From Alphaproteobacteria bacterium (GTDB lineage: Bacteria; Pseudomonadota; Alphaproteobacteria; Reyranellales; Reyranellaceae): a stretch of 64,000 nt of DNA. The stretch spans positions 62,001 to 126,000 of the forward strand of contig VGCZ01000001.1 of NCBI GenBank assembly GCA_016869975.1, given 5' to 3'. Below, piece after piece: positions 16,470 to 20,456 of the stretch (the first letter of the stretch is position 1; every line of letters starts with the position of its first letter). Made by a program: the position numbers and the translations under genes. Below the pieces are notes generated by a model. The model ran no database searches. It saw only the letters and a program-made list of their open reading frames with translations, and was not told the DNA's origin.

Positions 16470-18215
16470 TCAGCGCACCACGTAAAGCCGATATCCCGAC
16501 TTGGGATCCAACGGCCGCTCGACCAGCCAGTCGGGCGGCCGTCCTTCTTTCAGGGCGGCCCAGAGCGTTCCCGGCTTCGCCCGATCCTTGACGCAGACCA
16601 GCACCGACGTGGCCTTGGTTGCGCTGAAGCTGGCCGGCGCGGCGGCGCCGGCGAACCTGGTCTCGTCGAAGGCGTCCATGCTGCGGATGATCAGCTTCTC
16701 GGCGCGGTGATAGGGGCCGGCCACCATGATTGCACGCGAGAAGTAGAGGACCTCCGGCGCGTCGCTGAACGGCGTCAGCACGATCCGACCAGCCAACGGC
16801 TGGAGTTCCTGGCGCAACGGCCGCGGATCGCAGGAGCCGCCTTGCCGTTCCGCGGTCCCGTCCGAGGGCAGCGCCGAGGACAGCGCGTAGGGGCCGACCA
16901 GCAGGCCGAGCCACGCCGTCACCAACGCCAGACGCCAGGCGCGAGCCCCCTCGCCGCGCGTGGCGATCTCGATCACCACGCCCAGCGCGACGACCGCGGC
17001 GAGCTGGGGGTACATCGCGAAGCGCACATGCTTGATCCCGATGTAGAGCAGGAAGGCGGCGAAGACGGCTACCAGCAGCGCCATCGGCGTTCGCCCGCGC
17101 CACAGTAGCGCGCCCGTCGACGCCACGAGCACCAGCGCCGGCAGCGCGATCATCAGCCCGATGTTCTGCACCGAGCCGATCGGCTGCATCTCGGCAACGT
17201 ATTGCCAGACCCGCTGGATGGCCTCGGCCGAGAAGATGCCGCCTGTCCCCTTGAGCACGCCGGGGTAACGCACCACCCAGGCGACCAGCGGCACGGCGAG
17301 GATCGCGCCGGCGAGGATGGAAGCGAGCCACGGCGAGGCGACACCCGGCGCCAGACGACGCAGGATCAGCGGAATCACGAGCATCCCGGCGCCCAGCTCG
17401 ACATAGGGCAGCGACAGCCGGTCGACCTCCACCGCAAGACGGCCGTTGGCCGGCGGATCGATCGCCAACGCCAGCGCCAGCACGGCAAGATGCCCCGCCG
17501 CCAGCGCCAGCGCGCGCGATCCGACGCGCCGATCCGCCTCGACGTCGCGCAGCGCAGCGACACCCCAGGCAAACAGCAGGAACGGCAGCGCCTCCGGGCT
17601 CAGCCACTCGCCGAGCCCGCCCAGCGCGCCGGCGACGACCGCCGGCGCCAGACCACGACCGCCGGCGCCCGCGACATACGCCAGCGCCGGCATGATCACG
17701 GCGATGGCCGCCAACAGGACGTGATGGTCGGCGCGGCCGAAGGCGCCGTAGGCGACGATGCCCGGCGCCAGCGCGGCCAGCACCGCGGCCGTGATCGCGT
17801 GCCGGTGGCTGCCCGCCACCAGGCGTACCGCCTGAAAAGCGGCCAGCGCGACCAGCACAGAGGTCACTGGCCCGACCGCCGCCCCGGCCAGCCGCAACGC
17901 CTCGCCCAGCGGGAAGAACAGCCGCAGCGGCAAGGACAGCAGCAGGATCAGGCCGTCGAGCAGATGCGTCCAGTGCAGCGGTATATCCAAGCCGCTGTTG
18001 TCGCGCGGTGTATGGTGCAGGGCCCGGCCGGCCTCGAGCATGGCCTCGATCCGGCTTACCCGGGCGTAGGAATCGGTGTCGATCAGCTTGCCGTCGAACA
18101 CGCCCTGCAGATTGCCCGCCACCATCGAGACGCCGGCGCAGGCGAGAAAGATGATCGCCACCAGCAAGGTGGACGGACCGGGCGGGGTGGCGGGGTGACT
18201 CTGGTCGGCGGACAC
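16470..18215 (-). CDS. STT3-like polytopic membrane glycosyltransferase (GT-C)
   Basis: The protein has about twelve hydrophobic helices and a soluble C-terminal part of roughly 130 residues. The first periplasmic loop carries the acidic motif IDTDSYARV and then LDIPLHWTHLLDG. A later loop has FGRADHHVLL. Both match the STT3/AglB oligosaccharyltransferase layout. The WWDYG motif of true STT3 is not seen, so the acceptor may not be protein. The start is uncertain: GTG at 18215 leaves the promoter palindrome outside the gene, while another GTG at 18308 would add 31 polar residues. It faces the GtrA/FAD pair and probably belongs to the same glycan pathway. Confidence 0.65.
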   Translation of the reverse strand: MSADQSHPATPPGPSTLLVAIIFLACAGVSMVAGNLQGVFDGKLIDTDSYARVSRIEAMLEAGRALHHTPRDNSGLDIPLHWTHLLDGLILLLSLPLRLFFPLGEALRLAGAAVGPVTSVLVALAAFQAVRLVAGSHRHAITAAVLAALAPGIVAYGAFGRADHHVLLAAIAVIMPALAYVAGAGGRGLAPAVVAGALGGLGEWLSPEALPFLLFAWGVAALRDVEADRRVGSRALALAAGHLAVLALALAIDPPANGRLAVEVDRLSLPYVELGAGMLVIPLILRRLAPGVASPWLASILAGAILAVPLVAWVVRYPGVLKGTGGIFSAEAIQRVWQYVAEMQPIGSVQNIGLMIALPALVLVASTGALLWRGRTPMALLVAVFAAFLLYIGIKHVRFAMYPQLAAVVALGVVIEIATRGEGARAWRLALVTAWLGLLVGPYALSSALPSDGTAERQGGSCDPRPLRQELQPLAGRIVLTPFSDAPEVLYFSRAIMVAGPYHRAEKLIIRSMDAFDETRFAGAAAPASFSATKATSVLVCVKDRAKPGTLWAALKEGRPPDWLVERPLDPKSGYRLYVVR

Positions 18216-18273
18216 AATCGCTAGTATGACCGCATGCGATCGGCCTCCGCATCTGGATTTTCCGTCACAGGGC

Positions 18274-18302
18274 TTGCTATTTTGAACATCGTTCAATATA
18301 AT
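18274..18302 (+). promoter_or_regulatory. near-consensus promoter with palindromic operator
   Basis: TTGCTA (18274-18279), a 17-bp spacer and a perfect TATAAT (18297-18302) lie 30 bp before the acyltransferase start. The spacer is almost filled by the palindrome TTGAACATCGTTCAA (18282-18296; 6-bp arms, 3-bp centre). A protein bound there would block RNA polymerase. The size is short for a TetR site but suits a small helix-turn-helix dimer. Confidence 0.7.
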
Positions 18303-18331
18303 CCCCACCAGCGTCGATTTCGACGCGGGAG

Positions 18332-19144
18332 ATGAACATGCGGTGGCTTCGGGCGATCGCTTTCAACGTCTACTACTGGTCGCTGACGATCAGCGCGGCC
18401 CTCGCCTGCACAGTCCTGCTGATCCTGCCGCTGCGCGACCCGCTGCGCTTCATCATGCTGCATTGGGCGCGTGCCGTGGTCTGGGGCATGCGCGCTTTCG
18501 GCGGCATGCAAATCGACGTGCGCGGCCGCGAGCACCTGCCGGCCAAGGGCCCCGCGCTGATCGCCAGCAAGCACCAGAGCGAATGCGACGGCATCCTGCT
18601 CGCCGCCCTGGTCAAGGACATCGCCTTCGTGGCGATGAAGGAGCTGTTCTCCTGGCCGCTGATCGGGCCGATCCTCTATCGCCTGCAGATGGTGCGCGTC
18701 GATACCTGCGGCGGCGAGCGCGAACGGCGCAACCTGGCGCATTTCTGCCGCCGCGCCTTCGACAACGGCCGGATCATCGCGATCTATCCCGAGGGCCATC
18801 TGATGCCGATCGGCCAGAAGGAGCGCTATCGCACCGGCATCTACTACCTGTCGCGCGATCTCAACCTGCCGGTGACGCCGGTGGCGCTGAGCGTCGGCCT
18901 GCTGTGGAGCCGCTGGCAGTTCTGGAAGCGCCCGGGTCGTGCGGCGATCCAGTTCCTGCCGCCGATTCCGCCCTCGCCGGACAAGGACGCCTTCATGGCC
19001 CGGCTGGAGGACGAGATCGAGCGCGCGACGGCGGCGTTGGTGGCCGAAGCCACCGGGCAGCCGGTGGAGCTGGCCCGCTACGTCCCCCGCTCGCCGCCGC
19101 GCCCGCCCAGGGAAGTTGCTGCCGCCCCCTTTACAACGCCTTGA
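18332..19144 (+). CDS. 1-acylglycerol-phosphate acyltransferase-like (PlsC family)
   Basis: The 270-residue protein has one or two N-terminal hydrophobic helices (residues 8-34). The acyltransferase motif I is HQSECD (His81, Asp86), and motif III is YPEGHL (Glu154), followed by GIYYLS. PlsC-type enzymes add the second acyl chain to lysophosphatidate at the inner membrane. The start may be ATG 18332 or ATG 18338; GGGAG lies just before the first. The palindrome-bearing promoter ahead of it suggests repressor control. Cyclopropane fatty acid synthase follows on the same strand after 79 bp, forming a phospholipid group. Confidence 0.87.
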   Translation: MNMRWLRAIAFNVYYWSLTISAALACTVLLILPLRDPLRFIMLHWARAVVWGMRAFGGMQIDVRGREHLPAKGPALIASKHQSECDGILLAALVKDIAFVAMKELFSWPLIGPILYRLQMVRVDTCGGERERRNLAHFCRRAFDNGRIIAIYPEGHLMPIGQKERYRTGIYYLSRDLNLPVTPVALSVGLLWSRWQFWKRPGRAAIQFLPPIPPSPDKDAFMARLEDEIERATAALVAEATGQPVELARYVPRSPPRPPREVAAAPFTTP

Positions 19145-19223: not shown

Positions 19224-20456
19224 ATGCTCCTGGCGAAAGGCTTGCGACGACTGATCCGGACCGGCTCGATGAGCGTCATCGACGCCACGGGCGTCCTGCA
19301 CCGCATCGACAGCGGCGTGCCGGGTCCCGACGTGACGGTTCGGCTGCACGACCGCTCGGTGCACCGCACGCTGGCGCTCAATCCGCGCCTGCGCGTCGGC
19401 GAGGCCTACATGGATGGCACGCTGACGGTCGACGATGGGCGCCTCTACGATTTCCTCGACCTGCTCGGCCTCAACATGGCCGATCTCGAAGCGCATCCGC
19501 TGGTCTCGGTGAAAATGGTCTTCGAGCGCATCGTGCGCCTGATCGGGCAGTACAACCCGGTCGGCCGCGCGCAGCGCAACGTCGCGCACCACTACGATCT
19601 CAACGGCGCGCTCTACGACACATTCCTCGACGCTGACCGGCAATACTCCTGCGCCTATTTCCGCACACCGCAGGACACGCTGGAGCAGGCGCAGGCCGCG
19701 AAGAAGGCGCACATCATCGCCAAGCTGCTGATCGAGCCCCGACACAAGGTGCTCGATATCGGCTCGGGCTGGGGCGGGCTCGCCCTGCAGATCGGCCGCG
19801 ACGCCGGCGCTGACGTCACCGGCGTCACGCTCTCGGTCGAGCAGCACGCCGCCTCGAGCCGGCGCGCGCTGGAAGCCGGCATGGCCGATCGCGTGCGCTT
19901 CAAGCTGCTCGACTACCGGAAAGAGGGCGGCATCTACGACCGCATCGTCTCGGTCGGCATGTTCGAGCATGTCGGCGTGCCGCATTACCGGGAATTCTTC
20001 ACCAAGGTGAAGGCGCTGCTTGCCGAGGACGGCGTGATGCTGCTGCACTCGATCGGCACCATGGGGCCGCCAGGCACGCAGAACCCTTGGATGCGCAAGT
20101 ACATCTTCCCCGGCGGCTACACGCCCTCGCTGTCGGAGGTGCTGCGCGCGATCGAGCATGTCGGGCTCCACGTCACCGATATCGAGATCCTGCGCCTGCA
20201 CTACGCCGAGACCTTGAGGCACTGGCGCGAGCGCTTCATGGCCAATCGCGAGCGGGTGAAGGCGATGGCAGGCTTCGACGACCGCTTCTGCCGCATGTGG
20301 GAGTTCTACCTTGCCGCCGCCGAGATGAGCTTCAGGCGCATGGGCCAAATGGTCTTCCAGATACAGCTGACGCGGCATGCGGCCTCGGTACCGCAGACGC
20401 GCGACTACATGTTCGACGGCGAACGCGGGGCGCGACTTTCGGTGGCGGCGGAGTAG
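19224..20456 (+). CDS. cfa: cyclopropane-fatty-acyl-phospholipid synthase
   Basis: The enzyme transfers a methylene from SAM to cis double bonds of membrane phospholipid chains. The 410-residue protein has the N-terminal lipid-binding region and the segment VAHHYDLNGALYDTFLDADR (residues 120-139). The SAM loop is VLDIGSGWGGLA (176-187). FEHVGVPHYREFF and LHYAETLRHWRERF follow, all typical of the family. The ATG at 19224 follows GCGAGGACG. Together with the acyltransferase just upstream it remodels membrane lipids. Confidence 0.94.
   Translation: MLLAKGLRRLIRTGSMSVIDATGVLHRIDSGVPGPDVTVRLHDRSVHRTLALNPRLRVGEAYMDGTLTVDDGRLYDFLDLLGLNMADLEAHPLVSVKMVFERIVRLIGQYNPVGRAQRNVAHHYDLNGALYDTFLDADRQYSCAYFRTPQDTLEQAQAAKKAHIIAKLLIEPRHKVLDIGSGWGGLALQIGRDAGADVTGVTLSVEQHAASSRRALEAGMADRVRFKLLDYRKEGGIYDRIVSVGMFEHVGVPHYREFFTKVKALLAEDGVMLLHSIGTMGPPGTQNPWMRKYIFPGGYTPSLSEVLRAIEHVGLHVTDIEILRLHYAETLRHWRERFMANRERVKAMAGFDDRFCRMWEFYLAAAEMSFRRMGQMVFQIQLTRHAASVPQTRDYMFDGERGARLSVAAE

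What the first reader, a model, noticed from the sequence alone, without database searches (positions are those of the whole stretch)
18274..18302. Consensus promoter with a palindrome filling its spacer
TTGCTA-N17-TATAAT is the best-looking sigma70-type promoter noticed here, and its spacer is the palindrome TTGAACATCGTTCAA. A repressor would compete directly with RNA polymerase, controlling a PlsC-like acyltransferase and perhaps cyclopropane synthase. The regulator is not next to it.
Basis: partly seen in the sequence, partly recalled or inferred. Interest (0 to 1): 0.55.

Follow-up and report, generated by a model that had tools for sequence, protein, structure and literature searches.

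The report
Repressor site inside acyltransferase promoter
A DNA palindrome sitting inside the promoter of a membrane-lipid gene is very probably the docking site of a repressor encoded elsewhere in the same genome, and related bacteria control the same gene with a different palindrome in the same spot.

Summary
In detail: TTGCTA-17-TATAAT at 18274-18302, spacer filled by TTGAACATCGTTCAA (18282-18296). Palindromes alone are common here (57 perfect 6-3-6 in the window, this one included); conservation makes this one real. The operator lies upstream of the same PlsC-like acyltransferase in 4 of 4 genomes of the genus (Reyranellaceae), upstream of a DES-type desaturase (4/4), and twice, 51 bp apart, between a TetR gene and an ACP gene (4/4). 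In these 16 operators the half-sites never vary (0/40 columns); the centre does (8/12).

The regulator is most likely that TetR (contig C15). Its homologs in Alpha- and Gammaproteobacteria carry TGAAC-RNY-GTTCA before their own gene in 41 of 80 loci (78 sites; 3 in the other 544 kb; reversed control 0), often beside aas/lplT lysophospholipid genes.

Unexpected: outside this genus the orthologous promoter holds a different palindrome, TGAG-N6-CTCA, in the same spacer (41 of 41 examined family genomes that have a second TetR; 4 of them with one mismatch) and TGAAC in none. So an operator, and probably its repressor, was swapped while spacer occlusion was kept. No binding, expression or ligand was tested.

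The parts
18274..18279 (+). -35 hexamer TTGCTA
   Evidence: TTGCTA or TTGCCA in 4 of 4 genomes of the genus
18282..18296 (.). operator TTGAACATCGTTCAA for the TetR-family regulator TetR1 (encoded on contig C15, not in the window)
   Evidence: half-sites invariant in 4 genomes; centre ATC fits the R-N-Y rule of the family (76 of 78 sites)
18297..18302 (+). -10 hexamer TATAAT
   Evidence: TATAAT or TATATT in 4 of 4 genomes
18327..18331 (+). probable ribosome binding site GGGAG
   Evidence: read directly; inference
18338..19144 (+). PlsC-like acyltransferase gene (the ORF can also start at ATG 18332; the G002 ortholog points to 18338)
   Evidence: PF01553 75.5 bits; HX4D (HQSECD) and YPEGH motifs visible in the translation; orthologs 93-94% in the genus, 56-74% in the rest of the family
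19224..20456 (+). cyclopropane fatty acid synthase gene, probably same operon
   Evidence: PF02353 280.6 bits, NF053839 565.6 bits with cut-off 600; same strand, 79 bp after the acyltransferase, no terminator called between; adjacency kept in G000-G004 and G013
18295..18323 (-). weaker promoter-like site on the other strand (TCGAAA-17-TATATT) overlapping the operator; might let the same repressor act on the divergent STT3-like gene 16470-18224
   Evidence: 9/12; inference only

Best explanation
The palindrome is the operator of a TetR-family repressor (here TetR1; 209 aa, TetR_N + TetR_C_33, contig C15:71249-71875). TetR1 represses its own gene and the divergent acyl carrier protein gene through two operators 51 bp apart, a DES-type fatty acid desaturase gene, and the window's PlsC-like acyltransferase (probably with the cyclopropane synthase behind it). 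At the window promoter the dimer would occupy the -35/-10 spacer and so exclude sigma70 RNA polymerase. Release is probably triggered by an acyl-lipid-type ligand, so the regulon would adjust the acyl chains of membrane phospholipids. Shown: sequence, conservation, clustering of operators at TetR1 homologs, gene identities by profile. Inferred: binding, repression, occlusion, operon, ligand. Within the family this control is derived: other Reyranellaceae carry a different palindrome (TGAG-N6-CTCA) in the same spacer, most likely the operator of a second, unrelated TetR (TetR2, near gcvT), which the genus still encodes.
For: Own genome: 5 exact TGAACNNNGTTCA sites, control 0; two of them lie between TetR1 and the divergent ACP gene. 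Three target regions (4 operators) conserved in 4/4 genus genomes; half-site columns variable 0/40, centre 8/12, flanks 28/96. TetR1 homologs: of the best 80 loci of 187, 41 have at least one exact site within -350..+60 of the gene start, 78 sites in all, against 3 sites in the remaining 543,971 bp and 0 for the reversed pattern; consensus ATATTGAAC-RNY-GTTCAATAT. Recurrence in G064, another family: a TetR homolog (31-34%) with operators at its own gene and one abutting TATAAT before another acyltransferase. Lipid link: Aas-like matches within the fetched flanks of 33 of 80 homolog loci, 18 of them with an exact site. Swap: TGAG-N6-CTCA in 41 of 41 examined non-genus family genomes with acyltransferase and TetR2 (37 exact, 4 with one mismatch), TGAAC in 0; genus 4/4 the reverse. 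Nested in the promoter: 49 promoters, median 10/12 consensus matches against 5/12 at shifted positions.
Against: No binding or expression data. 39 of 80 TetR1-homolog loci lack an exact site (one of them, L146, has only 7 bp upstream; some have one-mismatch versions by eye, others a different palindrome or none). G004 (sister genus, no close TetR1) has orthologous acyltransferase (74%) and desaturase (73%) genes without TetR1 sites; this fits the model, but its desaturase promoter has neither palindrome. Three of 21 exact sites in the genus break the R-N-Y rule: two unconserved ones in G003 and the C11-type site of G002. 8 of 12 sites in seven genomes without a close TetR1 also fit R-N-Y (five of the seven have sites), so that rule alone does not identify functional sites. 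Some TetR1 homologs sit beside VIT/VWA and rhombosortase genes with no obvious lipid role. Ligand and operon structure are untested.
Confidence: 0.78

Rival explanations
1. The operator is real but is bound by another regulator with the same specificity (a TetR paralog), and TetR1 only regulates itself and ACP.
For: The genome has 9 places matching TetR1 at E<=0.001, TetR1 itself included; paralogs can share operators.
Against: TetR1 has two copies of this operator before its own gene, and the same pairing recurs at homologs across Alpha- and Gammaproteobacteria. Of 61 family genomes searched, close TetR1 orthologs appear only in the four of the genus, and of the family acyltransferase promoters examined only those four have this operator.
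Confidence: 0.12
2. The site is an activator site, or a mixed one, and not a repressor operator.
For: Some TetR-family proteins activate (recalled).
Against: It lies between -35 and -10 in 4/4 genomes of the genus, with a good core promoter (9-11 of 12), a position suited to exclusion; operators at the regulator's own gene are also usual for autorepression (recalled).
Confidence: 0.07
3. The operator exchange did not involve TetR2: the TGAG-N6-CTCA palindrome of the other Reyranellaceae belongs to a third regulator.
For: TetR2's own upstream region carries the motif in the 5 g3 genomes examined and G061, but not in the 4 g1, 1 g2 and 4 g4 genomes or G062. 9 of 75 genomes have TetR2 but no such acyltransferase found, and 3 incomplete genomes have the palindrome without a detected TetR2.
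Against: TetR2 and the acyltransferase co-occur (both 46, acyltransferase only 5, TetR2 only 9, neither 15 of 75 genomes; Fisher p 4e-6, not corrected for relatedness). The two near-complete genomes with the acyltransferase but no TetR2 (G007, G025) lack the palindrome. In G062 the TetR2 and acyltransferase matches are 38 bp apart on the same strand, TetR2 first.
Confidence: 0.25
4. Chance: a palindrome that happens to lie between two promoter-like hexamers.
For: 57 perfect 6-3-6 palindromes in the window, this one included.
Against: Invariant half-sites with a variable centre in 4/4 genomes and the genome-wide sites at TetR, ACP and desaturase genes.
Confidence: 0.02

Closest known systems
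TetR-family fatty-acid repressors DesT (Pseudomonas), FabR (E. coli), FadR (Bacillus), FasR (Mycobacterium)
   Same: TetR fold (AlphaFold model aligns to DesT 3lsj Z 15.5, FadR 3whc Z 15.4, FasR 6o6p Z 16.1; FabR was not among the rows), palindromic operators, targets that shape acyl chains. DesT's site, as recalled, also has a TGAAC half.
   Different: Only 16-22% identity in those alignments, so no sign of orthology; own operator TGAAC-RNY-GTTCA; targets are an acyltransferase, an ACP, a DES-type desaturase and, elsewhere, Aas/LplT. Drug-binding QacR scores as high, so the fold does not show a ligand.
PDB 3cjd, putative TetR regulator YP_510936.1 of Jannaschia sp. CCS1
   Same: Nearest solved relative by profile (E 5.5e-43) and by fold (Z 20.9, rmsd 2.4 over 182 residues, 27% identity).
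   Different: Structure only; no paper in the held library contains the word 3cjd. Its operator and targets were not examined here.
Aas / LplT lysophospholipid re-acylation
   Same: TetR1 homologs often sit beside Aas-type acyl-[ACP]-phospholipid O-acyltransferases (PRK06814, 1717 bits for L141) and LplT (PRK11195, 384 bits, L145); the window acyltransferase's best NCBIfam hit is the PlsC part of PRK08633 (66.6 bits against a cut-off of 1221).
   Different: The window gene is a stand-alone PlsC-type domain without transporter or ligase parts, with a cyclopropane synthase behind it.
QacR-type operator occlusion
   Same: TetR-family protein covering promoter elements blocks transcription (recalled).
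   Different: Here inferred from position only; the operator is a short 5-3-5 palindrome, QacR's is longer (recalled).

Membership tests
TetR family of transcriptional regulators (TetR1) | N-terminal TetR helix-turn-helix | tested here: met
   PF00440 47.2 bits, cut-off 24
TetR family of transcriptional regulators (TetR1) | all-helical C-terminal ligand domain and TetR fold | tested here: met
   PF13305 45.9 bits, cut-off 26.8; model pLDDT 89.6, best match 3cjd Z 20.9
TetR family of transcriptional regulators (TetR1) | palindromic operator at its own promoter | tested here: met
   two operators 51 bp apart in 4/4 genus genomes; exact operator at 41 of 80 homolog loci
TetR family of transcriptional regulators (TetR1) | binds DNA and is released by a ligand | not testable with these tools
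   no assay possible
FabR / FadR / FasR / PsrA / AcrR equivalogs | reaches the curated NCBIfam cut-off of such a family | tested here: not met
   FasR 25.6 of 330 bits, FadR 25.1 of 200, PsrA 24.2 of 300, AcrR 43.5 of 271; FabR not listed for TetR1
DesT | same as above, or shared operator and desaturase target | tested here: inconclusive
   no DesT model appears; fold match 3lsj Z 15.5 at 16% identity; a DES-type desaturase is among the targets, but DesT's operator is only recalled
1-acylglycerol-3-phosphate acyltransferase (PlsC) | acyltransferase domain with HX4D motif | tested here: met
   PF01553 75.5 bits; HQSECD in the translation
1-acylglycerol-3-phosphate acyltransferase (PlsC) | TIGR00530 subfamily cut-off | tested here: not met
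   63.8 against 102.95 bits; the genome has a second acyltransferase (C8:129833-130531, 36%) that could be the housekeeping enzyme
sigma70-type promoter | -35 and -10 hexamers 16-18 nt apart | tested here: met
   10/12 matches, 17 nt
sphingolipid delta4-desaturase-like (DES) desaturase (target) | PF00487 and PF08557 domains | tested here: met
   103.5 and 31.7 bits, cut-offs 29.7 and 23; the query held 34 extra N-terminal codons from the leader; the substrate is unknown

The most novel reading that the evidence does not exclude
A natural repressor swap seen in one promoter: the TetR1 regulator, with no close ortholog in the 57 other family genomes searched, took over the acyltransferase promoter from the resident, unrelated TetR2 by exchange of the palindrome inside the same -35/-10 spacer, so that the occlusion logic stayed while the signal changed. 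TetR1 itself belongs to a widespread proteobacterial group (operator TGAAC-RNY-GTTCA) that would govern re-acylation of lysophospholipids through Aas/LplT and PlsC-like enzymes, a step for which the listings of my paper searches showed no dedicated repressor.
Probability: 0.55. Interest if true: 0.68.

Novelty: new member of a known kind. Interest (0 to 1): 0.55.

Why it matters
It names a testable regulator, operator and small regulon for membrane-lipid acyl remodelling in a little-studied family, and extends the operator to a broad set of Alpha- and Gammaproteobacteria where the same regulator group often sits beside aas/lplT. The operator exchange inside one spacer, seen across about fifty orthologous promoters, is a clean natural case of regulator replacement in which promoter architecture is kept and only the recognised sequence changes; it can be tested in vitro with two proteins and two short DNAs.

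Tried and rejected
Chance palindrome: rejected by conservation, although window statistics alone would not have done it.

A two-mismatch genome scan of 21 genomes was too noisy (29-327 sites per genome; reversed control 11-221) and was not used; it was repeated with WTGAACNNNGTTCAW in 16 of those 21 (34 sites, control 2). 18 stretches around such sites were read, some of them TetR loci. Of the others, one lies before a DUF2339 gene (L235, PF10101 159 bits), which fits because DUF2339 genes also flank TetR1 homologs (5 of 80 loci); several lie inside coding regions and look like chance.

TetR1 homologs that do not fit: eight start directly behind leuC with no operator, G071/L199 has TTAATC-N3-GATTAA, and L148, L153, L154 and L207 show no operator by eye.

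Papers: eight searches. Only listings and abstract beginnings were seen, no paper was opened. None of the listed titles describes this regulator, either operator, or a TetR repressor of aas/lplT. This is no proof that none is in print: most papers of subscription journals are missing, and long result lists were shown only in part.

Full report
Observation. At 18274-18302 the window reads TTGCTA, 17 nt, TATAAT, and the spacer holds the perfect palindrome TTGAACATCGTTCAA (18282-18296). It is the better of two promoter-like sites in 15-22 kb (10/12). In the window the motif is unique, but it is one of 57 perfect 6-3-6 palindromes there, so the claim needs conservation.

Genome-wide sites. The window is C1:62001-126000 of a 4.84-Mb genome. 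TGAACNNNGTTCA occurs five times in it, the reversed control 0 times, with 1.06 expected from base composition. Besides the window there are two sites 51 bp apart on C15 between a TetR gene and a divergent ACP gene, one on C36 before a DES-type fatty acid desaturase, and one on C11 between gcvT and a small ORF, 0.68 kb before a second TetR gene.

Conservation in the genus. Over these four operators in four genomes, 0 of 40 half-site columns vary, 8 of 12 central columns do, and 28 of 96 flank columns do. This is the pattern of a protein reading two half-sites with a free centre. The C11-type site is seen in G000, G001 and G002, not in G003. G003 has two further sites without counterpart in the others that break the R-N-Y centre rule; the C11-type site of G002 breaks it too.

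The regulator. A scan of the genome collection gave 187 relatives of TetR1, of which the best 80 were kept. Exact TGAACNNNGTTCA occurs within -350 to +60 of the match start in 41 of 80 loci, 78 sites in all; the reversed pattern in 0; the remaining 543,971 bp of the same loci hold 3. The aligned sites give ATATTGAAC-RNY-GTTCAATAT (R-N-Y in 76 of 78). Multiple sites are common, most often 33 bp apart (11 of 37 successive pairs). Of the 39 loci without an exact site, L146 has only 7 bp upstream, several have one-mismatch versions by eye (L136, L137, L140, L174, L184), eight follow leuC directly and have none, and one (L199 = G071) uses TTAATC-N3-GATTAA. In G064, a member of another family, a TetR homolog has two exact and one imperfect copy of the operator between itself and a fatty acid hydroxylase-superfamily gene, and a further copy touches TATAAT before an acyltransferase gene only distantly like the window's (28% over part of it). 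The same promoter layout thus recurs on a different acyltransferase gene.

What the regulator group goes with. In 33 of 80 loci an Aas-type acyl-[ACP]-phospholipid O-acyltransferase match lies within the fetched flanks, 18 of them with an exact operator; in 13 the match begins 507-802 nt after the TetR start on the same strand, so it follows TetR directly. In the eight leuC-type loci the match is far off (3.5-3.8 kb) and cut by the end of the stretch. L141 encodes the full transporter-acyltransferase-ligase fusion (PRK06814, 1717 bits), and L145 encodes Aas and LplT separately. Other neighbours are a VIT/VWA protein (15 of 80) with rhombosortase (9 of 80), an alpha/beta hydrolase (10), DUF2145 (5) and DUF2339 (5). 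The Aas theme agrees with the genus targets (acyltransferase, cyclopropane synthase, ACP, desaturase); the VIT/rhombosortase theme does not obviously, and stands as a point against a purely lipid role.

Mechanism. The 13-bp core leaves 3 nt to the -35 and 1 nt to the -10 in all four genomes of the genus. A bound TetR dimer there would exclude RNA polymerase. That step, and repression itself, are inference from position. The AlphaFold model of TetR1 (pLDDT 89.6) is a standard TetR fold, closest to 3cjd (Z 20.9, rmsd 2.4, 182 residues), with lipid-sensing TetR proteins (FasR, FadR, PfmR, DesT) among the lower matches beside drug-binding ones (QacR), so the fold does not decide the ligand.

The swap. 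In relatives outside the genus the same acyltransferase promoter holds another palindrome. Of 75 family genomes, 51 have this acyltransferase and 55 have TetR2 (the C11 TetR). Of the 42 non-genus genomes with both, 41 could be examined: TGAG-N6-CTCA is there exactly in 37 and with one mismatch in 4, and TGAACNNNGTTCA in none (best 3-5 mismatches). Genus g1 is the reverse: 4 of 4 TGAAC, 0 of 4 TGAG. Five genomes have the acyltransferase but no detected TetR2: the two near-complete ones (G007 100%, G025 96%) lack the palindrome, and the three less complete ones (G049 82%, G126 60%, G131 71%) have it. Over 49 promoters with a palindrome (4 genus, 44 other family, and G061 of a second family of the order) a promoter spanning the palindrome matches consensus at a median of 10 of 12, against 5 of 12 at 490 shifted positions; 46 of 49 against 14 of 490 reach 8. 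The weakest are G006, G009 and G011 (7 of 12). A typical form is TTGACA-GTGAGTGAGTACTCAC-TATTAT (G014).

TetR2 as owner of the second palindrome is likely but less sure than TetR1 for the first. It co-occurs with the acyltransferase (both 46, acyltransferase only 5, TetR2 only 9, neither 15; Fisher p 4e-6 without correction for relatedness), its match lies 38 bp before the acyltransferase match on the same strand in G062, and it carries the motif before its own gene in the 5 g3 genomes examined and in G061, but not in the 4 g1, 1 g2 and 4 g4 genomes or G062. In G000 a TGAG-type site remains just before a gene without known family whose relatives in G004 (72%) and G014 (61%) also have one, so TetR2 may still work in the genus. 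As G061 (another family of the order) and genera g2, g3 and g4 share TGAG at the acyltransferase, TGAG is the simpler ancestral state.

Limits. All functional statements rest on sequence. Four genus genomes are few and one is 67% complete. Genome-wide sites of other genomes were read only in part. No paper was opened; the listings of eight searches showed nothing on this regulator.

Noticed in passing
L011:3836-3848 (own genome C11:73335), L060:1152, L070:2461: A TetR1-type operator lies between gcvT and the TetR2 gene in three of four genus genomes, followed 21 bp later by a degenerate second palindrome (TGAACATTGTTTA in G001 and G002, TGAGCGGTGTTTA in G000). The short ORF behind it starts alike in G001 and G002 and differently in G000; distance to TetR2 is 0.68 kb (G000), 1.2 kb (G002) and 3.0 kb (G001). 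TetR1 may act on TetR2 or on small membrane proteins.
   Followed up: partly
L011:3538-3748 (-): Tandem glycine riboswitch (RF00504, 65.9 and 36.5 bits) upstream of gcvT, close to the TetR1-type operator on C11.
   Followed up: yes
window 18295-18323 (-) and 16470-18224 (-): A divergent promoter-like site overlaps the operator; the divergent gene is a large membrane protein weakly like archaeal STT3 oligosaccharyl transferase (TIGR04154 36 bits, far below cut-off) and lies next to the acyltransferase in the four genus genomes.
   Followed up: partly
L143, L144, L147, L158, L159, L168, L171, L179 and others: In 15 loci named as Gammaproteobacteria the TetR1 homolog is divergent from a VIT/VWA protein resembling the marine sortase target (TIGR03788, below cut-off), with a rhombosortase (TIGR03902, above cut-off) behind it in 9; up to three operators lie upstream of the TetR. 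Why a lipid-type regulator sits there is unclear.
   Followed up: partly
L249:2014-3048, L253:1491-1873, L255:967-1512: A conserved gene (61-72% identity) without a Pfam match (L249, L255) has a TGAG-type palindrome at or just before its start in three genera; possibly another TetR2 target.
   Followed up: partly
L074:2739-2830 (G071): The TetR1 homolog of G071 has TTAATC-N3-GATTAA-like palindromes upstream: same spacing, changed half-site, possibly a natural specificity variant.
   Followed up: no
G061: Six TGAACNNNGTTCA sites (control 0) though no close TetR1 ortholog was found there.
   Followed up: no
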